Virus record (IMG/VR): IMGVR_UViG_3300020034_000015
Span: 1-58,194 of that record
Source of the DNA: a virus
DNA length: 58,194 nt
Strand: one strand, 5' to 3'
Part shown: piece by piece, positions 1 through 58,194 of the stretch
How the letters are laid out: every line of letters starts with the position of its first letter
How positions within the stretch are numbered: the first letter of the stretch is position 1
Program-made: the position numbers and the translations under genes
Notes under the pieces: generated by a model
Seen by the model: the letters and a program-made list of their open reading frames with translations, nothing else
What the model was told of the DNA's origin: nothing
Databases searched by the model: none

Positions 1-47
1 GACCTCTACGAACTGGCGACACCGGGACCCGCCAGTTCGTAGAGGTC
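1..47. repeat. Perfect 18-bp inverted repeat at the left end of the window
   Basis: Bases 1-18 are the exact reverse complement of bases 30-47, with an 11-nt spacer. The right arm reads naturally as tail-protein coding sequence (residues RQFVEV). The left arm has no such logic and lies at the extreme end of the sequence. If bases 1-17 are dropped, the GAC at 18-20 equals the last GAC of the window and the two halves of the Gp37-like gene join in frame. The left arm is therefore probably a fold-back or chimeric end, not native sequence. Confidence 0.8.
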
Positions 48-434
48 ACCTCCGGGGCCGCCCCGGACTGGTACCGCGTCGAGAAGCTGCTCGACCAGTC
101 CGGGACCACGGACGTCAACGGCGAGCTGACCCAGGCCGCAAACCTCGAACTGGGCAACGACAACCCGCAGGTCAGCCTGTCCACGGTCACCGTCGACACC
201 GAAGACCTGCGCGCGGGCCGCGACTTCGGACTCGGCGACAAAGTCACCGTCGAACTCGCCTCCGGCTTCGAGGTCGCCGACCTCGTCTACACGATCCGCC
301 TCGAAGCCACCCCCGGCGGCGGCGAACTCGTCACCTCCGTGATCGGCAAGGGCGACCAGACCACTGACACGCGCACCGTCCAGCAGATCCGCGGGCTCGC
401 CCGGCGGCTCGGGCGCATCGAAACCAGAAGGTGA
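3..434 (+). CDS. Gp37-like minor tail protein, C-terminal part (gene continues from the right end of the window)
   Basis: Frame 3 is open from the left edge to the TGA at 432-434. From codon ACC at 21 onward it encodes about 137 residues beginning TGTRQFVEV. It completes the protein that starts at 57445: 250 codons end exactly at the right edge, and codon 21 continues them in frame, giving about 387 residues. The family is the siphovirus ReqiPepy6 Gp37-like tail protein, which sits after the distal tail protein and is probably part of the baseplate hub. It is followed 6 nt later by the next tail gene. The first six codons come from the inverted-repeat arm and are probably not native. Confidence 0.8.
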   Translation, partial: PLRTGDTGTRQFVEVTSGAAPDWYRVEKLLDQSGTTDVNGELTQAANLELGNDNPQVSLSTVTVDTEDLRAGRDFGLGDKVTVELASGFEVADLVYTIRLEATPGGGELVTSVIGKGDQTTDTRTVQQIRGLARRLGRIETRR

Positions 435-440
435 GCACCT

Positions 441-1469
441 GTGGCGCAATCATCCTGGCCGTCCCCGGACACCTCCCGGGTCATCGACGACCTGGCCTAC
501 GAACGGCTCGTCGCAGCCCAGTACGTCGACGGCCTCGTCGGCAACATCACCGACACCCCGCTGGTCTACGCGGACGGCTCCGGGCGGCAGGTGTTCGTTC
601 GGGCGAGCCGCATCGCGCAGGTCCGCGGCCACGGGTGGTCGTCCGGCGGCAGCGTCCTGACGCTCTCCATCGGCGCCAACTCCTCGGGCAGCACCCGCGT
701 AGACCTCGTCGTGCTCGGGCTCAACCGCAGCACCTGGAACGTCACCGCCTACGTCAAGGCGGGCACCCCCGGGTCCGGGGCGCCCGCGTTGCAGGTCGAC
801 GCCGGCGACACTGGGATCTACGAGATCCCCCTGGCGGAAGTGACCGTGCCCAACGGCGCGACCCTCACCTCCGCAGGGCAGGTCCTGCCGCGCGCCTGGT
901 ACGCAACACCGTACGGGCCGGCCGCGCCCGGGTCGACGGTTGCGACCCGGCCGCCGGCGCCGGTTCCGGGCGTGATGATGTGGCAGAACGGCACCGGATA
1001 CGTGTGGAACGGGACGATCTGGGAGGCGATCTCCAACCCGCCTCTGCCGGTGACTTCGGACATGAGCACCACCCTGTTCGGCAACAGCATCAGGGACGAC
1101 AGCGCCTGGCACGATTTTCCGTCCGGGAACTGGGCTCCGCTGGCGTTCACCGTGCCGCCCTCCGGGCGCATCCACGTCAACATCAGCGGCTGGATCCAAA
1201 ATCTCCACGCCGCCGACAGCACGATCTGGATCAGCTGGCGGGCATCCGGCGGCGGACTGACCGTCGGCACGGACCTCGTCACCGTCCGGAACAGGGGGAT
1301 GAGCGTGCGCAGCAGCGGCATCGCCGCCACCAAACGCACGTACTTCAGCGGGCTCACCCCCGGCGCGTCCGTCACCCTCACACCCATCTACGCGAGCACG
1401 ACAACCACGAATGACGTGGACGTCAGCAGCTTGTCGTATGGGCGACTTGAAATGGAGCCGTCCGCATGA
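441..1469 (+). CDS. Minor tail protein
   Basis: 342 residues, GTG start preceded by AGAAGGTGAG. The N-terminal part (to about residue 170) is an upper-baseplate-like beta domain; it contains motifs such as VLTLSIGANSSGSTRVDLVV, typical of minor tail proteins that follow Gp37 in Streptomyces phages. A short hinge (PPAPVPG, W..GTGYVWNG) leads to a C-terminal beta-rich domain, residues about 210-342, with no recognisable catalytic motif. It overlaps the next gene by ATGA, so the two are probably translated together as tail-tip components. The exact role (hub, adaptor or fibre base) is inferred from position. Confidence 0.75.
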   Translation: MAQSSWPSPDTSRVIDDLAYERLVAAQYVDGLVGNITDTPLVYADGSGRQVFVRASRIAQVRGHGWSSGGSVLTLSIGANSSGSTRVDLVVLGLNRSTWNVTAYVKAGTPGSGAPALQVDAGDTGIYEIPLAEVTVPNGATLTSAGQVLPRAWYATPYGPAAPGSTVATRPPAPVPGVMMWQNGTGYVWNGTIWEAISNPPLPVTSDMSTTLFGNSIRDDSAWHDFPSGNWAPLAFTVPPSGRIHVNISGWIQNLHAADSTIWISWRASGGGLTVGTDLVTVRNRGMSVRSSGIAATKRTYFSGLTPGASVTLTPIYASTTTTNDVDVSSLSYGRLEMEPSA

Positions 1470-3208
1470 GCCGCCACGTTTTCGGCCAGGGCCCCAGTGA
1501 CTGGACTTTCACTGTCGGAGCCGCCAACGCCGCCACGTTGGCCGGCGGCGTCGTCATCACCGTGTGGGACTCCGCCACCAGCGGCACGCAGCTCACCGAC
1601 CTCCTGGACGCGACCGGCTCGGCGATCAGCACGGTCACCAGCTCAACCGGCGCCTCCGGCCTGCCGGTCGGCACCATCCCCAGGTTCTCCGGCCCGGACG
1701 GCGTCACTCAGATGTGGGCCGACGCCGGCGGCGGCTACCGTTCCCTGATGGTCGCCCTCGACCTCGGCGCCGACGTCAAGACCCTCCAGACGTCAACGGC
1801 CGGGCACTACGCGGCATCGAATCCGCACAACACCACATACTTCGACCTGACGGGCGTCTACAACCCGACGGTCTCGAACCTGCTCGCGCAGCCCACGTTC
1901 ACCGCCGCCCACCGCGGCAGTGGCGGGGAGTTCCCCGAGCACACCCTGCGGTCCTACCGGTCCGCGCTCGCCGCAGGCGCTCCCGCCATCGAGGTTTCCG
2001 TCCAGCTCACCGCCGACGGCGTGCTCGTGTGCATGCATGACCTGACCCTGGACAGGACCACGGACCACACGGGGAACCTGAAGGACTGGACTCTCGCGGC
2101 GTTGAGGGAAAAGGTCCTCGTCACCCAGCAGTCGCTGCTCGGCGCGGGCTGGTCGTCCCAGCCGATCCCCACGCTGGAAGAGGTCCTGGACGCGCTGTAC
2201 GGCAAGTGCGTGATCTTCATCGAGGCCAAGAGCAACGACGCCATTGTCCCCTTGCAGAACTTGCTGCTGGCCCGGTATCCGGGGTGCCAGCGCTCGGTCC
2301 TTTGGAAGGGCTATTACCAATCGACCTCTTTTGCGTGGGCGAAAGCGAATGGTTTTTACGTGTGGGGGTACGTCGACGCCACCACGACCAACACGCAGAT
2401 GGACACCTACGACGCCAACATCGACTTCTGGGGTGTGCCGATCGCGTCGACGGACGCCCAGGTCTCTCTGGTCGTCGCCCGCGGCAAAAAAGTCATGGTC
2501 TGGGACGTCCACCGGCACATCGACGTCGAGCGCCTGACCGCCCTCGGCGTCGTCGGCTTCATGGAAGCCCAGTGGATCTACCTCAACAACTCCCCGGCGC
2601 TCACCCTGGACCGATTCGACGCGCAGATCAGCCAGCCAGGCACCCTCGGCATCGCCCGCTACGACCCCGTCTACGCGCTGAAATACGACGGCGCCTCGGG
2701 TGCCTACGTGCCGGTGGTGCCCAACGACGCGGTGGGGATGTTCGGTCACCGCCCGGCCGACGGCACCACCCACACCATCAACTTCCAGATGAAGTGGGAC
2801 ACCGCCCCCGCATCGGCGCTGCACGCCGACGTCGCCTTGTGCAGGTCGAAAGACGACCCCTGGCAGTTCGCCAACAACAACAACGCCTACGGGGCGCTGG
2901 CCTCCCCGGGCGGCTACCACTGCCTGATCCGCGGCAACGGCGACATCCAGATCTACTCGCACGTCGCTGGCAGTACGACCGGCACGCAGCTCGGGACGCT
3001 GGCCACTGTCGCGCCGGTCAACGGCACGTTCATGACTTTCCAGATCATCGTGTCGAGCACGCAGATCATCTTCAAGCGCACTGACGGTGCTGGCTGGACG
3101 CTCACCGTCACGAACAACCTCTATCGGGGCCGGTACTGGCACCTCGGCAACGGCAGCATCACCTCGCTGACCAACAAGCCCACGTGGAAGCTGCTGTCCG
3201 TCGCCTGA
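1466..3208 (+). CDS. Minor tail protein / tail fibre with glycerophosphodiester phosphodiesterase domain
   Basis: 580 residues. Residues 1-125 form a baseplate-type beta domain. Residues about 146-390 are a GDPD-like TIM barrel: AHRGSGG (H149, R150), PEHT at 157-160, IEVSVQLTADG (E176) and MHDLTLDRTT (H191). The remaining about 190 residues look like a beta-sandwich binding domain. GDPD domains in phage tails can cleave glycerophosphate links, so teichoic acid or a related wall polymer is a likely target during adsorption (inference). Two usual active-site positions differ: PEN is PEH, and the Asp of the ExD metal motif is Ser178. Catalysis is therefore uncertain. Confidence 0.85.
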   Translation: MSRHVFGQGPSDWTFTVGAANAATLAGGVVITVWDSATSGTQLTDLLDATGSAISTVTSSTGASGLPVGTIPRFSGPDGVTQMWADAGGGYRSLMVALDLGADVKTLQTSTAGHYAASNPHNTTYFDLTGVYNPTVSNLLAQPTFTAAHRGSGGEFPEHTLRSYRSALAAGAPAIEVSVQLTADGVLVCMHDLTLDRTTDHTGNLKDWTLAALREKVLVTQQSLLGAGWSSQPIPTLEEVLDALYGKCVIFIEAKSNDAIVPLQNLLLARYPGCQRSVLWKGYYQSTSFAWAKANGFYVWGYVDATTTNTQMDTYDANIDFWGVPIASTDAQVSLVVARGKKVMVWDVHRHIDVERLTALGVVGFMEAQWIYLNNSPALTLDRFDAQISQPGTLGIARYDPVYALKYDGASGAYVPVVPNDAVGMFGHRPADGTTHTINFQMKWDTAPASALHADVALCRSKDDPWQFANNNNAYGALASPGGYHCLIRGNGDIQIYSHVAGSTTGTQLGTLATVAPVNGTFMTFQIIVSSTQIIFKRTDGAGWTLTVTNNLYRGRYWHLGNGSITSLTNKPTWKLLSVA

Positions 3209-3234
3209 TCCCCATCCCTACGCACCAACCGCCG

Positions 3235-3261
3235 CCCCGCGCCAGCCGGCCGGGGTTCTTT
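3235..3261 (+). terminator. Weak hairpin before the endolysin gene
   Basis: CCCCG (3235-3239) pairs with CGGGG (3251-3255), followed by TTCTTTC. It lies in the 70-nt gap between the GDPD tail gene and the endolysin. The stem is only 5 bp, so a partial terminator or mRNA-processing element is possible but unproven. Confidence 0.35.
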
Positions 3262-3278
3262 CATGTCCGGGAGGACCC

Positions 3279-4238
3279 ATGCCGACATCGCGCGGCCTCG
3301 ATGTGTCGTCCTATCAGGGCGTCCAGGACTGGAAAGCCCTGGCCCGCAGCGGGCTCACGTTCGCGTTCGCGAAAGCGTCCGAGGGCGAGCACACACACGA
3401 CGCCAAGTTCGGCACCCACATCACCGGCATCATCGGCGCCGGACTCGTGCCGGGCGCCTACCACTACGCCTGGCCGAACCAGGACCCGGCGGCCGAAGCG
3501 GCGAACTACGTCTCCGCGGTCCACACCCACCGCGTGGCCGGCTTCGTGCACGTCCTGGATCTGGAGCGCCGCACCGACGGCGCGAACTACAAGGGCCGCA
3601 CCGCGAAGCAGATCCAGGCGTACGCGCAGGCGTGGATCGATGACGTGCACGCCGCGTTCCCGCACGACCGCGTCGGCGTCTACACCTCCGCGTCGGACAT
3701 CGCGGCCGGCCATCTGCCGCCGAACGCCAGCTTCCTCTGGTACCCGGCGTATCCGTCGGGCGCCATGTCGTACGCGGACTCGGAGAAGCACACACCCCCG
3801 GCGCCGTCCGGGCGGCACCCGCTGTTCTGGCAGTTCACCAGCACCCCGCTGGACCGTTCCCTCGCCTATCTCTCCCCGGACGACCTGCGCACGTGGGCGG
3901 CCGGCGACGCACCCAAGCCCACGCAGCCTGACCCCGTGAAGGAGCCCACCTTGCCCGCACCGATTGATGTCTGGGGCTACAAGAACGCCAAGCAGGTCAA
4001 GGCGAACCCGAAGCTCCCCGACGCCTACGCCTACCTCCAGGGCGCGTACAACACGACGCGCACCCTCACGACTCAGGTCGCCGCCCTGAACGCCACCATC
4101 GGCGCACTCACCAAGGCAGTCGGCGACCTCCACTCGGGCATCGACACCGCGACCCTCGTGGCTGCCGTAGAGAAGGCCATCGCTGACGCCGTCGTGCACG
4201 TCCAGGTGGACGTCACCGGGGCGGCGGCCGAGGCGTGA
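3279..4238 (+). CDS. Endolysin, GH25 family muramidase
   Basis: 319 residues, ATG preceded by GGGAGGACCC. Residues 1-205 are a glycoside hydrolase 25 catalytic domain: GLDVSSYQG (D8), FAKASEG (E35), GAYHYAWP, and the catalytic VLDLE (D94 and E96). The domain cleaves the N-acetylmuramic acid to GlcNAc bond of peptidoglycan. A proline-rich linker (about 210-230) leads to a C-terminal region containing NAKQVKANPKLPDAYAYLQG and an alanine-rich helix, probably for wall binding or oligomerisation. No signal peptide is visible, so export should depend on a holin; the following membrane genes fit that. It overlaps the next gene by GTGA. Confidence 0.93.
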   Translation: MPTSRGLDVSSYQGVQDWKALARSGLTFAFAKASEGEHTHDAKFGTHITGIIGAGLVPGAYHYAWPNQDPAAEAANYVSAVHTHRVAGFVHVLDLERRTDGANYKGRTAKQIQAYAQAWIDDVHAAFPHDRVGVYTSASDIAAGHLPPNASFLWYPAYPSGAMSYADSEKHTPPAPSGRHPLFWQFTSTPLDRSLAYLSPDDLRTWAAGDAPKPTQPDPVKEPTLPAPIDVWGYKNAKQVKANPKLPDAYAYLQGAYNTTRTLTTQVAALNATIGALTKAVGDLHSGIDTATLVAAVEKAIADAVVHVQVDVTGAAAEA

Positions 4239-4576
4239 TCCTCAACCTGACGCCGCACCCGATCCGCCTCTACGCCGGAGAGCGCGAGGATGGCAGCGAC
4301 GATCTCGACCCCCACCTGCGCGAGACGATCCCACCCGAGCCGACCCCGGCCCGCCTCGCCACGATCGAACTCGGCGGCGGCATGTTCCCCGAGTTGGTCG
4401 AGTTCGGGCACGCCCAGAATCTCCCGCCGAAGCGGGACGGCGTGCAGTACATCGTCTCCCTGGTCGTCGCCCTGGCCCTCTGCGACCGGCGCTCCGACCT
4501 CCTCGTCCCGTACCGCGAGGTACGCAACTCGACCGGCACGGTCATCGGCTGCCGCAGTCTCGCGCAGCCCGTCTGA
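4235..4576 (+). CDS. Conserved phage protein of unknown function (LTPHPI family)
   Basis: 113 residues, GTG start overlapping the endolysin stop. It starts ILNLTPHPIRLYAG and has ETIPPEPTPAR and a C-terminal Y..VSLVVALALCDRRSDLLVPY segment. This pattern recurs in small proteins of actinobacterial phages and hosts, but no function is known to me. It has no transmembrane helix or nucleotide-binding motif. It lies inside the lysis cluster and is translationally coupled to the endolysin. Confidence 0.75.
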   Translation: MILNLTPHPIRLYAGEREDGSDDLDPHLRETIPPEPTPARLATIELGGGMFPELVEFGHAQNLPPKRDGVQYIVSLVVALALCDRRSDLLVPYREVRNSTGTVIGCRSLAQPV

Positions 4577-4602
4577 ACCCCAACCAGTAGAAACGGATCA
4601 CC

Positions 4603-4989
4603 ATGAAGATCTTCGGCAGAGAACCCGTGTACTGGCTCACCACCATCGCCGTCATCCTCAAGCTCGCCGCGGCCTACGGCATCGACGTGTCCGACAACGA
4701 GCAGGGCGCGATCAACGCAGCCCTCGCCGCCGCCGTGGGCATCGCCACCGCCATCGTCCTCAAGAGCGGGGCGCTCGCCGCGAGCATCCTCAACTTCGGA
4801 CAGGGCGGCATCGCCTTGTTCATCGCGTTCGGGCTCCACATGTCCGCACACCAGCAGGGCCTGATCATGTCCGGCATCGCGACCGTACTAGCTCTGGTGC
4901 TGCACGAGCAGGTCACAGCCCCAGTGCCGTCCGTACCCCTGGAGGAGACCAGCCCGGTGAAGACCACCCAGCCCGTTCAGGCGGTGTGA
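4603..4989 (+). CDS. Membrane protein, holin candidate
   Basis: 128 residues with three hydrophobic stretches (about 8-28, 38-62 and 66-95) and a hydrophilic Pro/Thr-rich C-terminal tail. The N-terminus MKIFGREPVYWLTTIAVILKL resembles small phage holins encoded directly after an actinophage lysin. The gene sits two genes after the endolysin and overlaps the next membrane gene by TGATG. Holin function is inferred from topology and position only. Its Shine-Dalgarno sequence is weak (ACGGATCACC). Confidence 0.7.
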   Translation: MKIFGREPVYWLTTIAVILKLAAAYGIDVSDNEQGAINAALAAAVGIATAIVLKSGALAASILNFGQGGIALFIAFGLHMSAHQQGLIMSGIATVLALVLHEQVTAPVPSVPLEETSPVKTTQPVQAV

Positions 4990-5417
4990 TGCGCGCGGCG
5001 GTCCGGCGGGTCAGCAAACGGTTGGGCCGCCGCGGCCGGATCCTCCTCGCCTTCGGGATCATGCAAGTCCTCTACGGCGTATCCATCGTCAGCGACCCCC
5101 GCTACGGAATCGTCCGCGGCGTCGGCGTCCTCACCCACATGCAGCCCATGCCCTTCTGGGGCGCGATCTGGATCGTCTGCGGCGCCGTAGCCCTCGCCAT
5201 GGCCTGGGAAATCCGGTCCTCCCGCGACACCTGGGGGTACGGCGCCGTCACCGTACCGATGGCGTTGTGGTCCGGTGCGAACTTCGTCGCCTGGGTCTCC
5301 AGCGAATACCCGCAAGCCTGGACATCGGTATTCACCTGGGGCGCATTCGTGTACATCGCAGGCATCGTCAACCGGTGGCCGGAGTACGGCCGGAGGAGAG
5401 CCAATGGACGCGAGTAG
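4989..5417 (+). CDS. Membrane protein in the lysis cluster
   Basis: 142 residues, start taken at the ATG that overlaps the upstream stop (TGATG). A basic N-terminus (RRVSKRLGRRGR) precedes four hydrophobic segments at about 18-36, 52-72, 80-98 and 108-126. No catalytic motif is present. With the neighbouring holin candidate it may form a second holin, antiholin or superinfection-related membrane protein. The last 14 nt overlap the next gene. Confidence 0.7.
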   Translation: MRAAVRRVSKRLGRRGRILLAFGIMQVLYGVSIVSDPRYGIVRGVGVLTHMQPMPFWGAIWIVCGAVALAMAWEIRSSRDTWGYGAVTVPMALWSGANFVAWVSSEYPQAWTSVFTWGAFVYIAGIVNRWPEYGRRRANGRE

Positions 5418-5772
5418 CGGCCTGTGGGGGGCCGTCGTCGCGGCCATCGGCCTGCTCAGCCTCCTCGTCACCGGACGCCGCGGCCCGCGCGAGGTGCCTC
5501 CACCGGCCGGGACCGCCCAGGACCCGACACCCGAACAACTCCAGGTGTCTCCGGCGATCTGGAAGGACATGCGCGGCGAAATCAGGGAGCTGCGCACGAA
5601 AGTCGACCACCTCACCGACGTGGTCGAGCAGGGCAGCACCCGGGAGCGGTCTCTCCGCGAGCACCTCCGGATGGCCATGAAGGTCATCCGCCGCGCGAAC
5701 CGGCGCCTACGGGCCGCCGGCCAGCCTGAAGAGCCAGTGCCTGTCGAACTCATCCCGTACTCGCTCGACTGA
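5404..5772 (+). CDS. Small membrane-anchored coiled-coil protein
   Basis: 122 residues. ATG 5404 is chosen because GGAGGAGAGCC lies directly upstream; longer in-frame starts lack a ribosome site. Residues 7-24 form one transmembrane helix (GAVVAAIGLLSLLVTG). After a Pro-rich linker, residues 50-105 are a charged heptad-like coiled coil (IREL..KVDHLTDVVEQ, SLREHLRMAMKVI). One membrane anchor plus a coiled coil beside lysin and holin genes suggests a spanin-like or lysis-accessory role; this is inference. Confidence 0.7.
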   Translation: MDASSGLWGAVVAAIGLLSLLVTGRRGPREVPPPAGTAQDPTPEQLQVSPAIWKDMRGEIRELRTKVDHLTDVVEQGSTRERSLREHLRMAMKVIRRANRRLRAAGQPEEPVPVELIPYSLD

Positions 5773-5783
5773 AAGGGGGCACG

Positions 5784-7700
5784 ATGGCGCTGCCCGTAGG
5801 CGTGCCGAAGGTGACCGTCACGACGGCGAAGCCCCTGATCACCCCGGGGGGTGCCCCGTACAAGGGGCGCCTCGTCTTCACCGGCCCCGACCTGGTGACC
5901 GTCGGTGGCCTGGACCTCGTCATCGGCGGACAGGCACCGGCGTACCTGACGGCCGGGCTGTTCTCCATCGACCTGGTGCCCTGCGACGTCGACACCATGA
6001 GCCCGAGCGGGTGGACGTACAAGGTCGACGGGGAATTCTCCAACGCCCCGGACTTCACCCGGTACGTCAGCGTCCTGTCCGGTGCCGGGCCATTGCAACT
6101 CGCGGACATCCTCGTGCCCGACCCGGTTGCCGGGGATTTCACGGTGTTGCTCGACCCGTCATCGTTGGGCGGGGCGGCGCTCCTCGACGTGGGGCAGACC
6201 GCGGCGACCGTCGCGGCCGGGGATGACGCGCGGTTCAGTACGGGTGGTCCTCCGTCTGGTGCGGCCGGCGGGGCGCTCACGGGCACCTACCCGAACCCCG
6301 CACTGAGCTCGGTCACCATCGCGGCGTTCGACCCGGCCGGGGCGGCGGCCGTCGCACAGTCGTCGGCCATCTCCGCAGCAGCCGCTGATGCCACCACGAA
6401 GGCGGGGACCGCGCAGTCCACGGCCATCTCGGTCGCGGCCTCGGACGCGACAACGAAAGCCAATGCGGCGCAGTCCGCGGCCACTTCGGCGGCTGCCACC
6501 GACGCGACGGGCAAGGTCACCGCTCACGCCGGTGCGACGGACCCCCATGCCGACCGGGCGTTCACAACCTCCGCAGTCTCCACGCACTCAGGAGCCACGG
6601 ACCCGCACGCAGACCGGGCATTCACCACGAGCTCGGTGTCTACGCACACGGGGGCAGCAGATCCCCACGGTGACCGTGCGGCGGCAGCTTCGGACGCGGC
6701 CTCGAAGGTCACCACGCACGCGGGCGCCACGGATCCGCACGCGGACCGCAGTTTCACGACCGGCGCCGTCTCAACTCATGCGGGGGCGGGCGACCCTCAC
6801 GGGGACAGGGCGGACGCCGCGGCGAAGTACGTGCCGCTCGGGGGCGGGACGATGGCTGGGGCGTTGAACCTGTCCAGCGGTGGTGTGGCCAGCAGGACCC
6901 CGGATGTCCAGGTGTTCACCGGCAGCGGGACGTGGACGAAGCCGACCGGCGCGGTGCTGGTGTCCGTGTACCTGTTGGCCGGTGGTGGCGGTGGCGGGTC
7001 GGGGCGGCGCGGTGCTGCGGGCACCATCCGCTGCGGTGGTGGCGGCGGGGCCGGCGGGTCGGTGTTCCAGGCGAACTTCCAGGCGTCGGCGCTCGGGGCG
7101 ACGGTCGCGGTGACCGTGGGCACGGGAGGCCCGGGTGGTGCGGCGAGGACGACGGACGACACCGATGGCGTGGCCGGGACCGCCGGGGGTGTGACCCTGT
7201 TCGGTCTGATCGGCCGTGTTGGAACCGGTGGTGCGGGCGGTGGTGGTACGGCGACGGCGGGCACTGGGGGCAGCACGGGCAGCGGCACTGTGACCGGGGG
7301 TGGTGGCGGTGCGGCGTCCGCAACCGGGGGCGCGGGCAACAGTGGCGGCGCGGGGGTGCTCGCGGGCCCGGGTGGGGGTTCTGGTGGTGGCATCACGGCG
7401 GCCAACGCGGCGGCCGCGGGTATCGGGGGCGGCGGCAACGGGGGCTCGGTGTCCGGCGCTGGCGGGTCCGTGGGTGGTGCTGCACCCACCCCGGCGGCGG
7501 ATTCCGCGGCGGGCTCTGGCCTGTCAGGTGGTGGCGGTGGCGGTGGTGCCGGGTCGATCACGGCGGCCGCGACCGCGGGCGCGGCCGGTGCCCTGTACGG
7601 GGCGGGTGGGGGTGGCGGTGGCGCCAGCCTGAACGGCAACAACTCGGGTGCGGGGGGCGCGGGCGGGAACGGCATCGCCATCGTGATCTCGTTCTTCTGA
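5784..7700 (+). CDS. Tail fibre / minor tail protein with DPHADR repeats and glycine-rich tip
   Basis: 638 residues, ATG with an AAAGGGGGCACG ribosome site. Residues 1-135 form a beta domain. Then come ALTGTYPNP, an Ala/Thr-rich helical stretch (about 180-250), and five imperfect repeats of the type GATDPHADRAF at about 250-350. A short WTKPTGAVLVSVYLLAGGGGGG segment follows, then a glycine-dominated C-terminus (about 390-638) ending in GGNGIAIVISFF. Glycine-rich tips are known as receptor-binding domains in other tail fibres. It is the last late gene before a strong terminator, so it is probably a distal receptor-binding fibre. Confidence 0.8.
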   Translation: MALPVGVPKVTVTTAKPLITPGGAPYKGRLVFTGPDLVTVGGLDLVIGGQAPAYLTAGLFSIDLVPCDVDTMSPSGWTYKVDGEFSNAPDFTRYVSVLSGAGPLQLADILVPDPVAGDFTVLLDPSSLGGAALLDVGQTAATVAAGDDARFSTGGPPSGAAGGALTGTYPNPALSSVTIAAFDPAGAAAVAQSSAISAAAADATTKAGTAQSTAISVAASDATTKANAAQSAATSAAATDATGKVTAHAGATDPHADRAFTTSAVSTHSGATDPHADRAFTTSSVSTHTGAADPHGDRAAAASDAASKVTTHAGATDPHADRSFTTGAVSTHAGAGDPHGDRADAAAKYVPLGGGTMAGALNLSSGGVASRTPDVQVFTGSGTWTKPTGAVLVSVYLLAGGGGGGSGRRGAAGTIRCGGGGGAGGSVFQANFQASALGATVAVTVGTGGPGGAARTTDDTDGVAGTAGGVTLFGLIGRVGTGGAGGGGTATAGTGGSTGSGTVTGGGGGAASATGGAGNSGGAGVLAGPGGGSGGGITAANAAAAGIGGGGNGGSVSGAGGSVGGAAPTPAADSAAGSGLSGGGGGGGAGSITAAATAGAAGALYGAGGGGGGASLNGNNSGAGGAGGNGIAIVISFF

Positions 7701-19584: not shown

Positions 19585-19724
19585 ACCGGGCCGCCGGCGG
19601 GACGGCAAATGGCCGCCGGTTGGTCCTGCGCCTGCGTGTACGGAACCCCCTCACCGGCACCTGCCGGGCGTACACGCAGGCGCAACCCGGCGCAGATTCA
19701 CCCGATCGGGTGACGTACGCATAG
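19581..19724 (+). CDS. Small basic protein
   Basis: 47 residues, ATG overlapping the previous stop. The sequence is MNRAAGGTANGRRLVLRLRV followed by RNPLTGTCRAYTQAQP and ends VTYA. Coding is supported mainly by the coupled overlap. Function unknown. Confidence 0.5.
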   Translation: MNRAAGGTANGRRLVLRLRVRNPLTGTCRAYTQAQPGADSPDRVTYA

Positions 19725-37638: not shown

Positions 37639-37880
37639 CCGCCCCCGCCGAGCGGCTCGGCCCGCGGGAGATCGACACGCTCCGGCACCTCGCCGCCGGC
37701 CGGTCGTTGGGCGAGGCCGCCATTGAAATGCACGTCACCAAAGGCACTGTCCGCAGCTACCTGCGCGGCATCTACAGCAAGTTCGGCGTCGGCACCCGAG
37801 AAGACGCCGCGCGGGTCGGCCGGCGCCTCGGCTACGTCACCGACGCCTGCCCCACCTGCGGCCACGGAGGCACCCGATGA
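37635..37880 (+). CDS. LuxR-type HTH protein
   Basis: 81 residues, GTG overlapping the previous stop. LGPREIDTLRHLAAGRSLGE, AIEMHVTKGTVRSYLRGIYS, KFGVGTREDAARVGRRLG is a GerE/LuxR C-terminal HTH without a receiver domain; CPTCGHGG is an extra zinc-like motif at the end. Likely a stand-alone phage transcription factor. Confidence 0.85.
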   Translation: MTAPAERLGPREIDTLRHLAAGRSLGEAAIEMHVTKGTVRSYLRGIYSKFGVGTREDAARVGRRLGYVTDACPTCGHGGTR

Positions 37881-52369: not shown

Positions 52370-53638
52370 GTGCCCACGACCGTCGGTTCGGCTCAGGTCC
52401 GGCTGGCCCCTTCACTCACCGGGTTCGCCCAGCGGCTGCGCACCGAACTCCGGGGCATCAGCACCGATGACCTGAGCGTCGGGATCTTCCCCAAGCTGAA
52501 CCAGGCGGCGGCCAACAAGGTCACCCGGGACCTCGACAAGCTCACCAAGGCGCGGACCGTACCGATCTTCGCCTCCGTCGACACCCGTGTCGCCGCCGAC
52601 GAGATCGACGCGCTCACCCGCAACCGCACCTCGACCATCCGCCTCGATGCCGACACCCGCGTAGCGGCCGACGAGATCGACCTCCTCACCCGCGATCGCA
52701 CCGTCACCGTCCGAACCCGCACCGTCGGGGGCACCGGTGGCGGCTCAAGCCCCGTAGGAGCAGCCGGGGCAGGCGAGGACATCAAGGGGACGCTCATCTC
52801 CCTGGCCCCGGCCCTGGCCCCCGTCGCGGCGTACCTGACGTCCATCGCGGTGGCCGGCGGCGCAGCCCTGGTGTCCGTCGGGGCGTTCGGCGCGGCGGTG
52901 AAGCCGCAGATCGCCATGTTCACCGGCCTCGCGGCGGCCGAGGACAACGCCGGCGCGGCCGTCAAGAAGTACGGCGTCGCCTCCAAGGAGGCTTACGAGG
53001 CTCAGGACGCCGTCGCTGCGACTCTCGACGCGATGCCGGAGCAGACCCGGCGCGCCGCGGTGGCGTTCACGATCCTGCGGAGCGACTTCAAGGACTGGTC
53101 GAACTCCATGTCGGAGTTCACGATGACCCCGGTCACCCAGGGCATCGCCGTTGTCGACAAGATCCTGCCGCACCTGTCGCCGCTGGTGAAGGACACCTCC
53201 AACCAGCTGTCCCGGCTGACGACCATCGCGGGCGGCGCGGTCAACACGCCTGGCTTCGACAAGATGATGGGCAAGTTCAGCACGTTCTCCGCGAAGGTCC
53301 TCAAGGAGATCGTCGACGAGACCGTGCATTTCTCCCGGATCCTCAGCGAGGGCAAGGCCAGTGGCCCCGCCAGCGAGTTCATGGCGTACGCCAAGGAGAA
53401 CGGCCCCGAGGTCAAGAAGACCCTCACCGACATTGCCACGGCCGTCCTGCACGTCGTCCAGGGCGTCTCGGAGGCCGGCCCGAGCATGCTCACGGTGGTC
53501 GACGCCGCCGCGCAGCTGGTGTCCGCGCTGCCTCCGGAGTTCATCGGCCGCGCACTCCAGCTCTACACCACTTTCAGGCTGTACAAGCTCGCCAGCTCCG
53601 GCGTCACCGCGCTGGGGGGCAGCCTGAAAGTGGTGTAG
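52370..53638 (+). CDS. Tape measure protein, N-terminal part (ended by an in-frame amber codon)
   Basis: 422 residues, GTG with GACGAGGGGGTCAAG upstream. VGSAQVRLAPSLTGFAQRLR, a tandem FASVDTRVAADEIDALTRNR / LDADTRVAADEIDLLTRDRT pair, a hydrophobic stretch (LISLAPALAPVAAYLTSIAV) and helical parts are typical of tape measures. The frame ends at TAG 53636-53638, but the same frame is open from there to 56455 and continues tape-measure sequence. The stop lies in the right arm of a perfect 25-bp inverted repeat, so it is probably a mutation or artefact. Confidence 0.9.
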   Translation: MPTTVGSAQVRLAPSLTGFAQRLRTELRGISTDDLSVGIFPKLNQAAANKVTRDLDKLTKARTVPIFASVDTRVAADEIDALTRNRTSTIRLDADTRVAADEIDLLTRDRTVTVRTRTVGGTGGGSSPVGAAGAGEDIKGTLISLAPALAPVAAYLTSIAVAGGAALVSVGAFGAAVKPQIAMFTGLAAAEDNAGAAVKKYGVASKEAYEAQDAVAATLDAMPEQTRRAAVAFTILRSDFKDWSNSMSEFTMTPVTQGIAVVDKILPHLSPLVKDTSNQLSRLTTIAGGAVNTPGFDKMMGKFSTFSAKVLKEIVDETVHFSRILSEGKASGPASEFMAYAKENGPEVKKTLTDIATAVLHVVQGVSEAGPSMLTVVDAAAQLVSALPPEFIGRALQLYTTFRLYKLASSGVTALGGSLKVV

Positions 53639-53644
53639 AGCTGG
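53557..53644. repeat. Perfect 25-bp inverted repeat at the tape-measure break
   Basis: Arm 1 (53557-53581, beginning CCAGCTCTACACC) and arm 2 (53620-53644, ending GGTGTAGAGCTGG) are exact reverse complements separated by 38 nt. Arm 1 encodes a natural-looking QLYTTFRLY. Arm 2 encodes SLKVV-stop-SW and creates the amber codon. Arm 2 looks like a templated copy of arm 1. Confidence 0.95.
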
Positions 53645-53695
53645 CTGACCGCCGTCCGCGCCGCCTCGACAGCGGCCGGCGGCGGCCTCACGGGT

Positions 53696-56455
53696 GTGCG
53701 CGCAGCCATCGCCGGCCTGTCGACGGGGGCGAAGATCGGCGGGGCGCTGCTGGCGGTCGCCGCTGTGGTGCTGGTGCTCAACAAGCTGAGCAGCTCCGGT
53801 AAGAAGGCCCCCGACGTCGACCGGATGACGACCGCCATCGGGGACTTGGGCCGCACCGGCAAGGTCACCGGTGAGGCGGCGCGTTCCTTCGGCAAGGATC
53901 TGTCGGGCCTGAATGAGTCCATCGACCGCCTCAACGGCGGCGGTTCCAAGATGGATCACTTCAACGACGCGATGAACAAGGTGTTCTCGCTGGGCATGGC
54001 CAAGTCCAACAGTGCGAAGGCCGCGTCCAAGGACCTCGACGCCGTCGACAAGTCCCTGGCCAACCTGGTGTCGGGCGGCAAGGCGGATCTCGCGTCTGAG
54101 GCCGTCAAGCGGCTCACTGCCAGTTACGCCAAGACGGGCAAGCCGACGTCGGACCTCACGTCCAAGCTCGACGACTACCAGAGTGCCCTGGCCGACGCGA
54201 AGTTCGAGAGCGACCTCACCGCCGACTCGATGGGTCTGTTCGGCAACCAGGCGCAGCGGGTCCAGTCGCAGCTCGACGGGCAGAAGAAGAGCGCCGATGG
54301 CCTGCGGCAGTCGATCCAGGCGCTGAACGACGTCAACCGGGCAGCGATCAGTGCCCAGTCGGACTTCGAGCAGGCCATCGACGACGCGAAGAAGGCGGTC
54401 GACAAGCACCACCACGCCCTGTCGATGACCAACGGTGAGCTGAACCTCAGCAGCCAGGCCGCCCGTGACGCCTATCAGCCGCTGTCCGACCTTGCGGCGA
54501 AGACGGACGCCGCGACGGCGGCCGCCCTGGACCAGGGCAAGTCGTGGACGGACGTCAAGGGGACGTACGACCGGGGCCGCTCCTCTCTGATCAAGACCGC
54601 CCACCAGATGGGTCTGACCACCAGCGAGGCCAAGACTCTCGCCAGCCAGATCCTGAAGACCCCGGACAAGACTGCTTACCTCAGGGGCAACATCACCGAC
54701 CTGAAGGACAAGGTCGGCAAGGCGCAGGCCAGCCTCAAGGGCGTCAAGGGGCCCAAGGCGGTGGCGATCAAAGGCAACATCGCCCAGCTCAACAACGTGA
54801 TCCGGGACGCACAGGCCAAGATCAACAACCTGCACGGGACGTCCGTCGACATCCTCACCACGTACACGATCGTCAAGGGCAAGCCCGTCAACGTGGCGCA
54901 TGAGGGGGGCGGCTACGCCACCGGCGGCATCTTGCCCGGCTATACCCCCGGCAAGGACGTCCACCACTTCTACAGCCCCACCGGCGGCGGCCTGAACCTG
55001 TCCGGCGGCGAGGCCGTCATGAGGCCCGAGTGGACCCGTGCGGTCGGCCCGGCCATGGTCAACGCCTGGAACCGCCTATCGCGCTCGCAGGGCGTGGCCG
55101 GTGTCCGGCGGGCGATGGGCTTCAAGGACGGCGGCGTCCTCGGCAGGGTCCAGAGCTTCGCCACCGGCGGCGTCGTCACCCTGAAGTCGGCGCAGTCGTC
55201 GTACGACTCCATCCTGGCCCGGGTCAACGCCGACCAGACGGCCGTCAACCAGGCGCAGGCCGCATACAACCGGGCGCACAGCCAGGCCGACAAGGCCCGC
55301 GCCCAGTCCATGCTCCGCGACGCCCGGCTACAGCTCAAGGAGGACCGGCAGAAGGAGGCCACCGCAGCCAAGCGCCTCAACGAGGCGCAGAAGCGGGCCA
55401 ACACCTACGCGGCGGCCGTCAAGAAGCGCAACGGCGCGGTGCAGAACGTCCTCGACAAGCTCGCGGCGAACTTCACCAAGAGCATGACCGGGTCTGCGTC
55501 GCAGATCACGTCCACGTCGAACAGCATGATCACGGCGTTGCAGCGGCTCAGGGACAGCGCGGTGACCGCCAACGGGCGCAAGGCCACGATCAACACGATC
55601 AACCTGGTCCGCACCGACACCGGCAAGCTCACCACCCTCGCGGGCAAGCGCGACTCGCTCAATTCCACGATCGCCACGGCCAACGCCTACGCGGCCAGCG
55701 CCTCCGACAGCGCCAAGTCCTCCGCTGGCCTGACCAGCCTGTTCAGTGGTGCAGGGCCCTTCAACGCCAAGAGCGTCCTGTACGGCCTCAACGTCCGGCT
55801 GGCGCAGATCAAGAAGTTCTCCTCCAACCTGGCGCTGCTCGCCAAGCGCGGCCTGAACAAGGGCTTGCTCAACCAGCTCGTCCAGGCAGGCCCCGAGCAG
55901 GGCGGCACCTACGCGCAGGCGCTGGCTGACGCGTCGACTGCGGACCTCAAGTCGATCAACTCGGCTCAGGTCCAGATCGACAGCGCGTCCACGGCGTACG
56001 GCAAGGGCGTCGCCGACTCGATGTACGACAGCGGGAAGCAGGCGGGGAAGGGCTTCCTGACCGGCTTGCAGGCGCAGGAGAAGGACATCGAGAAGGAGAT
56101 GTCGGTCCTCGCCAAGAAGATCGAGGCGGCCATCAGGAAGGCCCTGGAGATCAAGTCGCCGTCGAGGCTGACGCAGCGGCTGGGCGGGCTGACCGGTGAG
56201 GGCTTCCTCGTCGGTTTCCGCAACAAGCACCCGGAGATCGAAGCCAGCGCCCGGCGCATGGCGGCGCTGGTCGCCGGGGCCTCCGCTGAGCGCGTCCGGG
56301 TGGCCCAGCCGCTGTCTGCCGCGGGCGCGCAGGGAACCGCCGGCGGCTCGATCACGTACCAGATCAACGCGAGGACGGCCGATTTCAAGATGTCGGACCT
56401 CCAGACACTCCAGCGCCAGCAGGAGGCCCGGCAACGGGTGGGGAGGCCGTACTAG
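53696..56455 (+). CDS. Tape measure protein, C-terminal part (same frame as 52370)
   Basis: 919 residues if it starts at GTG 53696, with no ribosome site; in the intact protein it directly follows codon 423 (53639 onward), giving about 1361 residues in all. AGLSTGAKIGGALLAVAAVV is a transmembrane-like stretch. Long coiled-coil regions (LNDVNRAAISAQSDFEQAID, NQAQAAYNRAHSQADKARAQ), a GYATGGILPGYTPGKDVHHF, GEAVMRPEWTRAVGP segment, and FLVGFRNKHPEIEASARRMA near the end match siphovirus tape measures. The tape measure sets tail length and enters the host membrane. Confidence 0.9.
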   Translation: MRAAIAGLSTGAKIGGALLAVAAVVLVLNKLSSSGKKAPDVDRMTTAIGDLGRTGKVTGEAARSFGKDLSGLNESIDRLNGGGSKMDHFNDAMNKVFSLGMAKSNSAKAASKDLDAVDKSLANLVSGGKADLASEAVKRLTASYAKTGKPTSDLTSKLDDYQSALADAKFESDLTADSMGLFGNQAQRVQSQLDGQKKSADGLRQSIQALNDVNRAAISAQSDFEQAIDDAKKAVDKHHHALSMTNGELNLSSQAARDAYQPLSDLAAKTDAATAAALDQGKSWTDVKGTYDRGRSSLIKTAHQMGLTTSEAKTLASQILKTPDKTAYLRGNITDLKDKVGKAQASLKGVKGPKAVAIKGNIAQLNNVIRDAQAKINNLHGTSVDILTTYTIVKGKPVNVAHEGGGYATGGILPGYTPGKDVHHFYSPTGGGLNLSGGEAVMRPEWTRAVGPAMVNAWNRLSRSQGVAGVRRAMGFKDGGVLGRVQSFATGGVVTLKSAQSSYDSILARVNADQTAVNQAQAAYNRAHSQADKARAQSMLRDARLQLKEDRQKEATAAKRLNEAQKRANTYAAAVKKRNGAVQNVLDKLAANFTKSMTGSASQITSTSNSMITALQRLRDSAVTANGRKATINTINLVRTDTGKLTTLAGKRDSLNSTIATANAYAASASDSAKSSAGLTSLFSGAGPFNAKSVLYGLNVRLAQIKKFSSNLALLAKRGLNKGLLNQLVQAGPEQGGTYAQALADASTADLKSINSAQVQIDSASTAYGKGVADSMYDSGKQAGKGFLTGLQAQEKDIEKEMSVLAKKIEAAIRKALEIKSPSRLTQRLGGLTGEGFLVGFRNKHPEIEASARRMAALVAGASAERVRVAQPLSAAGAQGTAGGSITYQINARTADFKMSDLQTLQRQQEARQRVGRPY

Positions 56456-57427
56456 ATGCCCATCCTCGCGACACCGGTCATCGCACCCCCGCCACCTCCG
56501 CCTCCGCCACCGCCTCCTCCGGTGGTACTGCCGGACGTCGGACTGGCGACCGCGACGTACTTCGACCCGTCCGGTACAGCGTGGCCGCTGACGGACGACG
56601 CGCCGGAGCGCGGCTGGTTCACCCTTGCCGACGGCGTGTCCGGCCTCGGCGCGGCCCCGGTCTCGCTCACCACGGACCCGTACCCGCGGGGCGGGGCCAG
56701 GGTGCGGCACATCCAGCCGCAGCCGCGGACCATCGTCTGGCCCCTGCTCGTCTTCGGCAGCACCCACATGGAGTTCGTGGGCCGCTGGCGCAACCTGGCG
56801 CGGGCCCTGACGGACACCTCCCGCTACGGGCCGGGAATCCTGGAGATCGCCCGCCCGGACGGCAGCCTGCGGCGCATCCCGGTGTACTACCAGGACGGCT
56901 GGGAGGGCCAGGCCACACAGGGATACGGGCGGGTCATCGACAGTGGGGTCGTCACCTGGTTCTGCGAGGACCCCTACTGGACGGACCCGGTGCCCGTTAC
57001 CGATCACCGCGAGTCCGGGACCGGTGTGAGTTTCCTCGACCCGTACCCCCAGGTGTCATCCAGCCAGGTCCTCGGCGCGACGACGCTCGTCAACCCCGGC
57101 GACGCCATCGGGTGGCCGACCTGGACGATCACCGGCCCGGCATCCGCGATCACCTGCACCAACAACGACACCGGTGAGTCGTTCACGCTCACCCCGTCGG
57201 ACACCGGCCACGGCAACCTCCTGGCCGGCGAGAAGGTCACGGTCCGCACCGACCCCATGCAGGTCCGCTACCAGAACGGCGACGTGTGGACGCCGGCTCT
57301 GAACTGGCCTTCCGCACAGCTGTGGGGGCTTCAGCCCGGCACCAACGCCGTCACGTTCACGCTCTCCGGCTCCGGCACGGGCTCCGCGGTCGACGTGTCC
57401 TTCGAAGCCCGGTACGAAACAGCCTGA
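56456..57427 (+). CDS. Distal tail / minor tail protein (Dit-like)
   Basis: 323 residues, ATG one codon after the tape-measure stop (TAGATG). A poly-proline run (12 P at about 11-22) is followed by WPLTDDAPERGWFTLADGVS, RIPVYYQDGWEGQATQGYGR, VTWFCEDPYWTDP and FTLTPSDTGHGNLLAGEKVT. The EDPYW motif and order after the tape measure match siphovirus distal tail proteins, which form the ring at the tail tip. Confidence 0.88.
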   Translation: MPILATPVIAPPPPPPPPPPPPVVLPDVGLATATYFDPSGTAWPLTDDAPERGWFTLADGVSGLGAAPVSLTTDPYPRGGARVRHIQPQPRTIVWPLLVFGSTHMEFVGRWRNLARALTDTSRYGPGILEIARPDGSLRRIPVYYQDGWEGQATQGYGRVIDSGVVTWFCEDPYWTDPVPVTDHRESGTGVSFLDPYPQVSSSQVLGATTLVNPGDAIGWPTWTITGPASAITCTNNDTGESFTLTPSDTGHGNLLAGEKVTVRTDPMQVRYQNGDVWTPALNWPSAQLWGLQPGTNAVTFTLSGSGTGSAVDVSFEARYETA

Positions 57428-57444: not shown

Positions 57445-58194
57445 ATGGCGATCGATCTGCTGGTCACCGACCGGAACCTGAACGTCCTCGGTGACCCCCT
57501 GGACGGCTGGACCGACCTCAGCTGTGACCTCAACTTCAAAACCCCGGCGACCGGGTCGGTGGCCATGCCCGCCCGCCCCGAGTACGAGGCGCTGCTCCAG
57601 CCCGGCAACAGGTTGGTCGTCATCCGTGACGGTGCTATCTGGTGCGCGGGGCCGATGGAGCAGCCCCAGCAGTTCGAGTGGGCCGTCGACGGCGAACAGG
57701 ACCCGGGCAAAGTCACCGTCGGCTTCTCCGACGACCTCGCCCGGATCGCCGGATACCTCACCTACCCCGACCCCACGGTGAACCTCGCCTCGCAGACCGT
57801 CGTCTCGGACCCCACCTACCAACTGACCGCCACCAACGCGGAGACCATCATCCGCACCCTGGTCAACCTCAACTGCGGGCCCGGCGCCATCACCGCGCGC
57901 AGGATCGAACAACTCGTCCTCGACACCGCCGCCGGCGTGGGCACCAACACCTCCATCAGCACCCGGTTCGAACCGCTCCTGGACGTGTGCCGGACCGTGG
58001 CCAGCGGGGACGGCCTCGGGTTCCGCACCTACCAGGTCGGCGACCAGATCAAGTTCGCCGTCTACGCCCCCGTCGACCGCACCGGCACCGCCCGCTTCTC
58101 CCGCAACCTCGGCAACCTGCGGTCTGCGAGTTTCACGCTCGCCGCGCCCACAGCCACCTCCGAGCTCGTCATGGGCGGTGCCGGTGCGGTCGAC
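57445..58194 (+). CDS. Gp37-like minor tail protein, N-terminal part (continues at the left end of the window)
   Basis: 250 codons from ATG 57445 (GGGGGTGACC upstream) to the window edge, ending GGAGAVD. AIDLLVTDRNLNVLGDPLDG, FKTPATGSVAMPARPEYEAL, GAIWCAGPMEQPQQFEW, and RRIEQLVLDTAAGVGTNTSI, RFEPLLDVCRTVASGDGLGF are typical of the ReqiPepy6 Gp37-like family. Its last codon joins in frame to codon 21 at the left end. Confidence 0.9.
   Translation, partial: MAIDLLVTDRNLNVLGDPLDGWTDLSCDLNFKTPATGSVAMPARPEYEALLQPGNRLVVIRDGAIWCAGPMEQPQQFEWAVDGEQDPGKVTVGFSDDLARIAGYLTYPDPTVNLASQTVVSDPTYQLTATNAETIIRTLVNLNCGPGAITARRIEQLVLDTAAGVGTNTSISTRFEPLLDVCRTVASGDGLGFRTYQVGDQIKFAVYAPVDRTGTARFSRNLGNLRSASFTLAAPTATSELVMGGAGAVD

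What the first reader, a model, noticed from the sequence alone, without database searches (positions are those of the whole stretch)
53557..53644. Tape-measure gene interrupted by an amber codon lying inside a perfect 25-bp inverted repeat
The tape-measure frame runs 52370-56455 with a single in-frame TAG (53636-53638). The TAG lies in the right arm (53620-53644) of an exact 25-bp inverted repeat. The left arm (53557-53581) encodes sensible protein and the right arm replaces what should be tape-measure sequence without changing the frame. A templated (quasipalindrome) switch or a fold-back sequencing/assembly error explains both the repeat and the stop. If real, the phage would be defective or would need suppression. 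A regulated invertible segment is a less likely alternative.
Basis: partly seen in the sequence, partly recalled or inferred. Interest (0 to 1): 0.85.

Follow-up and report, generated by a model that had tools for sequence, protein, structure and literature searches.

The report
Fold-back artefact in tape-measure gene
The premature stop in this phage's tail-length gene is most likely not biology: a near-identical copy of the same phage has the normal gene, and the same kind of mirror-image copying error caps both ends of this assembled sequence and one end of the other.

Summary
A perfect 25-bp inverted repeat (53557-53581 / 53620-53644, 38-nt loop) carries an in-frame TAG (53636-53638) inside an otherwise open tape-measure frame.

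A sister contig (IMGVR 3300020027_000027) matches the window over 31,047 nt and differs at only two places. One is here: 18 nt (53627-53644) are replaced, base for base, by the reverse complement of 53557-53574, directly after a pre-existing 7-bp inverted repeat. The sister and a ~90%-identical contig share the unpatched, open sequence, so the window allele is derived; no other IMG/VR contig carries it. The other difference is a short fold-back-like patch in the sister, where the window is normal.

The window's next two longest inverted repeats (22 and 18 bp) lie exactly at its two ends, as does the sister's longest (18 bp). Each holds 14-16 nt of fold-back sequence that disagrees with the other contig. 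Only 1 of 58 other contig ends is like this, and 7 of 20,000 random cuts.

This matches the documented library artefact in which single strands fold back on short natural repeats and are filled in. Verdict: sequencing/assembly artefact. A genuine template-switch mutation is the only serious rival. Nothing supports recoding, suppression or a switch.

The parts
52370..56455 (+). tape-measure gene (1,361 codons in the sister contig), interrupted here by TAG 53636-53638
   Evidence: frame with one TAG; sister frame open from end to end; PHROGs tail length tape measure, 2.6e-26.
53557..53581 (+). left arm, native sequence; 53557-53574 is the template of the copied patch
   Evidence: Identical in sister L004 and nearly so in L006.
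53575..53581 (+). pre-existing CAGGCTG that pairs with CAGCCTG 53620-53626 (7-bp fold-back seed)
   Evidence: Both halves present in the unpatched sister.
53627..53644 (+). 18-nt patch, exact reverse complement of 53557-53574, replacing 18 nt of native sequence; contains the TAG
   Evidence: Base-by-base comparison with sister and L006; patched allele found in no other IMG/VR contig.
1..47 (.). fold-back contig end: 1-18 is the reverse complement of 30-47 (1-14 not in the sister)
58072..58194 (.). fold-back contig end: 58173-58194 is the reverse complement of 58072-58093 (58179-58194 not in the sister)

Best explanation
A fold-back artefact of library preparation that was carried into the assembled consensus. 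A single-stranded fragment whose 5' end lay at 53557 and whose (trimmed) 3' end lay at 53626 folded on the natural 7-bp repeat CAGGCTG/CAGCCTG. End-repair polymerase then copied the 5' overhang (53557-53574) onto the 3' end, adding 18 false bases that contain TAG. Amplified copies of that molecule dominated local coverage, and a substitution-only step (read correction or consensus vote) wrote the 18 bases over the true ones without changing length. Shown here: the patch, its template, its seed, its derived state, and the same signature at contig ends. Inferred: the wet-lab step, the dominance of duplicates and the software step.
For: 1) The sister contig is identical over 31,047 nt except this patch and one other cluster; the sister and ~90%-identical L006 share the unpatched, open allele. 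2) The patched allele is private to the window among IMG/VR contigs. 3) The other difference is a short fold-back-like patch in the sister where the window is normal. 4) The three longest inverted repeats of the window are this one and its two termini, flush with base 1 and base 58194; the sister's longest is flush with its last base. Novel lengths are 18 nt here and 14, 16, 16 nt at the ends, after seeds of 7 and 4, 6, 2 bp. 5) Terminal fold-backs of 12 bp or more: 3 of 4 ends of these two contigs, 1 of 58 other IMG/VR contig ends, 7 of 20,000 internal cuts. 6) No isolated point substitution separates the contigs, yet two fold-back-like patches do. [quoted passage not shown] also PMC10908179). 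8) Equal length is unusual for true template switches (5.5% of high-confidence hominid events, PMC7954356) but expected if bases were overwritten in place; there is also no microhomology at the return.
Against: Raw reads were not available, so dominance of artefact reads over true reads at 53627-53644 is not shown. Terminal fold-backs are dead ends, whereas the focal one rejoins the true sequence; the software step that does this is inferred. The library kit and assembly pipeline of the window's dataset are unknown.
Confidence: 0.9

Rival explanations
1. A genuine short-range template-switch (quasipalindrome-type) mutation in one phage lineage: the nascent strand folded on the 7-bp repeat, copied 18 nt of itself, then returned to its template, leaving a broken tape-measure gene.
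For: Pre-existing 7-bp inverted repeat, exact templated patch, derived state. Such events are known (PMC7954356, PMC8604942).
Against: Same-size fold-backs cap the contig ends, where no mutation can explain them. Equal-length outcomes are rare for template switches (5.5%). There is no outer homology or microhomology to guide the return. No isolated substitution but two such patches over 31 kb. The allele would destroy an essential tail gene yet be the consensus.
Confidence: 0.08
2. A functional recoding or readthrough stop with an RNA hairpin, giving a short (422 aa) and a long tape-measure product.
For: Strong predicted hairpin, -75 kcal/mol, z = -8.0. The frame continues open after the TAG.
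Against: The stop lies in the 3' arm of the stem, not upstream of it. None of the eleven contigs that cover the site (sister included) has the stop; they align without gaps. No tRNA gene in the window.
Confidence: 0.01
3. A regulated invertible segment: the 38-nt loop flips between two 25-bp inverted repeats.
For: Only the geometry: perfect arms around a short loop.
Against: The sister differs inside one arm, not in loop orientation; its loop is identical to the window's and its repeat is only 7 bp.
Confidence: 0.005

Closest known systems
Interrupted-palindrome library artefact (Star et al. 2014, PMC3946424)
   Same: Terminal reverse complement of the same strand, seeded by a short natural inverted repeat; tracts of similar size (mean palindrome 11 bp there; 18-25 bp palindromes with 14-18 nt novel tract here).
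   Different: Reported in reads of historic DNA; here seen in an assembled metagenomic consensus, at contig ends and once internally, overwriting 18 nt in place.
Inverted-repeat chimeric reads from sonicated libraries (PDSM model, PMC10908179)
   Same: False sequence templated by a nearby inverted repeat during end repair.
   Different: Low-frequency variant calls in human panels; here the consensus itself.
Short-range template-switch mutations (PMC7954356)
   Same: Same formal description: templated reverse-complement patch next to an inverted repeat.
   Different: True mutations mostly change length and do not cap contig ends.

Membership tests
Fold-back library artefact | False tract is an exact reverse complement of nearby sequence on the same strand | tested here: met
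   18/18 nt equal to the reverse complement of 53557-53574.
Fold-back library artefact | Seeded by a short inverted repeat present in the true sequence | tested here: met
   7-bp CAGGCTG/CAGCCTG in the unpatched sister; 6, 4 and 2 bp at the contig ends.
Fold-back library artefact | Same assemblies show fold-backs at molecule (contig) ends above background | tested here: met
   3 of 4 ends of the two contigs, 1 of 58 other contig ends, 7 of 20,000 internal cuts.
Fold-back library artefact | Supporting reads end at the false tract and are clonal | not testable with these tools
   Raw reads are not held.
Short-range template-switch mutation | Templated patch with pre-existing inverted repeat, derived in a phylogeny | tested here: met
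   Sister and L006 share the unpatched allele.
Short-range template-switch mutation | Present in independent molecules or inherited in relatives | tested here: inconclusive
   Patched allele in no other IMG/VR contig; the otherwise identical sister lacks it. Independent molecules of the window's own sample could not be examined.
Readthrough / suppressed stop | Stop conserved in relatives, or suppressor tRNA present | tested here: not met
   No relative has the stop; no tRNA in the window.
Invertible DNA switch | Both orientations of the spacer between conserved inverted repeats | tested here: not met
   Sister has the same spacer orientation and only a 7-bp repeat.

The most novel reading that the evidence does not exclude
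A real, very recent template-switch mutation that knocked out the tape-measure gene in the dominant member of a phage population, caught against a virtually identical intact genome.
Probability: 0.08. Interest if true: 0.35.

Novelty: not a real feature. Interest (0 to 1): 0.1.

Why it matters
It is a caution for mining uncultivated virus genomes. Fold-back read artefacts can survive assembly as perfect inverted repeats at contig ends and, more deceptively, as in-frame internal patches that create false stops, false hairpins and apparent recoding or inversion loci. Checking whether the contig's own ends are fold-backs, and comparing with any near-identical contig, exposes them cheaply.

Tried and rejected
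Suppressor tRNA in the window: none found. Other contigs with the patched allele: none. A GTDB genome carrying the left-arm region: none by pattern. Phage and plasmid records: only distant relatives, mostly Streptomyces phage-plasmids of about 85-94 kb and actinophage tape measures, none able to resolve single bases at the site. Other perfect inverted repeats in neighbouring-dataset contig 3300020021_000028 (24, 17, 16 bp) were inspected; they could be natural and none shows the stop-in-open-frame signature clearly, so they were not counted as evidence. Polarising the sister's second patch through a third contig failed: no other contig carries the window's version exactly. A quasipalindrome longer than 7 bp in the ancestor: beyond the seed only 6 of 18 positions agree, near chance.

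Full report
OBSERVATION. The arms are 25 nt, perfect, 38 nt apart. The frame 52370-56455 contains one TAG, at 53636-53638, inside the right arm. Order-3 Markov simulations of the window never gave a perfect arm longer than 16 nt with a loop up to 150 nt (40 simulations), so this is not chance. The tape-measure assignment is supported by PHROGs hits (2.6e-26), with a distal-tail (Dit) gene immediately downstream (56456-57427).

THE DECISIVE COMPARISON. One IMG/VR contig, IMGVR_UViG_3300020027_000027 (31,061 nt), aligns to the window from 34631 to 58178 and on through 15 to 7513, so it also closes the genome into a circle (or permuted map) of 58,162 nt. In about 31,047 aligned nt the two differ at two places only. 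At 53627-53644 the window has AAAGTGGTGTAGAGCTGG and the sister CGGACCGTAGCGACCCGC, equal in length. The window's 18 nt are the reverse complement of 53557-53574. A second contig, 3300021411_000047 (L006), about 90% identical over the gene, has the sister's version letter for letter. The sister's tape-measure frame is open over 1,361 codons, and L006 is open as far as it reaches. Eleven contigs that cover the site, sister included, align there without gap or stop. The repeat and the stop are therefore derived and private to the window: a scan of IMG/VR for the patched sequence found only the sister's left arm, on the opposite strand.

HOW THE PATCH AROSE. In the unpatched sequence 53575-53581 (CAGGCTG) and 53620-53626 (CAGCCTG) already form a 7-bp inverted repeat. 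The patch starts at the base after that seed and copies outward for 18 nt. At its far end there is no microhomology with the native sequence and no outer homology. This is the anatomy of a strand that folded back on a short natural hairpin and was filled in.

WHY ARTEFACT RATHER THAN MUTATION. First, the window's next two longest inverted repeats (22 and 18 bp) end exactly on its last and first base, and the sister's longest (18 bp) ends exactly on its last base. Compared with the other contig, the final 16, 14 and 16 nt at these ends are false, after seeds of 6, 4 and 2 bp. Second, only 1 of 58 ends of other IMG/VR contigs examined has a terminal fold-back of 12 bp or more (51 ends, seven more), and only 7 of 20,000 random internal cuts. 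Third, the only other difference between the contigs, at 37662-37665, is a short patch in the sister that completes a perfect 12-bp palindrome there; a G-run miscall at a hairpin could also explain that one. Two patches against no isolated substitution in 31 kb is not a natural mutation spectrum. Fourth, equal-length outcomes were 5.5% of high-confidence template switches in hominids (PMC7954356), whereas both patches here preserve length.

MECHANISM. Star et al. [quoted passage not shown] PMC10908179 describes inverted-repeat chimeric reads from sonicated libraries. I infer that a fragment starting at 53557 did this, that its amplified copies dominated local coverage, and that a substitution-only step overwrote the 18 true bases up to the end of the artefact read; one candidate is k-mer read correction, which is used for low-input, PCR-amplified metagenomes (PMC6511391). 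The last step is not shown; the pipeline of the window's dataset is unknown.

ALTERNATIVES. A true template-switch mutation remains possible (about 8%). Recoding is contradicted by the absence of the stop in all relatives that cover the site and by the position of the TAG inside the 3' arm. An invertible segment is contradicted because the sister has the same loop orientation and only a 7-bp repeat. No suppressor tRNA was found.

CONTEXT. The genome encodes terminase, portal, major head protein, tail fibre, DnaB-like helicase and exonuclease genes, and its tape measure is distantly related to genes of Streptomyces phage-plasmids (phage ZL12 and plasmids of about 85-94 kb). Apart from the artefact it looks like an ordinary siphovirus of actinobacteria (host inferred from relatives).

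Noticed in passing
window 1-14 and 58179-58194: Both contig termini are fold-back sequence that is not part of the genome; the sister contig joins 58178 directly to 15-17, giving a circular (or permuted) map of 58,162 nt.
   Followed up: yes
window 37662-37665 (sister contig 3300020027_000027, about 3032-3035): The only other difference between the two contigs: the sister has GGGG where the window has CCGC, completing a perfect 12-bp palindrome in the sister. Either a short fold-back patch or a G-run miscall.
   Followed up: partly
window 19627-19684: 16-bp perfect inverted repeat with 26-nt loop, apparently between genes, in the part of the genome the sister does not cover; a natural terminator/operator and another fold-back cannot be told apart.
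   Followed up: partly
L012 11564-11664 (contig 3300049823_000408, right end): 28-bp fold-back flush with the last base of a more distant IMG/VR contig, so the artefact occurs in other datasets too.
   Followed up: partly
L073 359-413 (contig 3300020021_000028): 24-bp perfect inverted repeat with 7-nt loop near the contig start, plus 17- and 16-bp repeats elsewhere; not resolved whether natural.
   Followed up: partly
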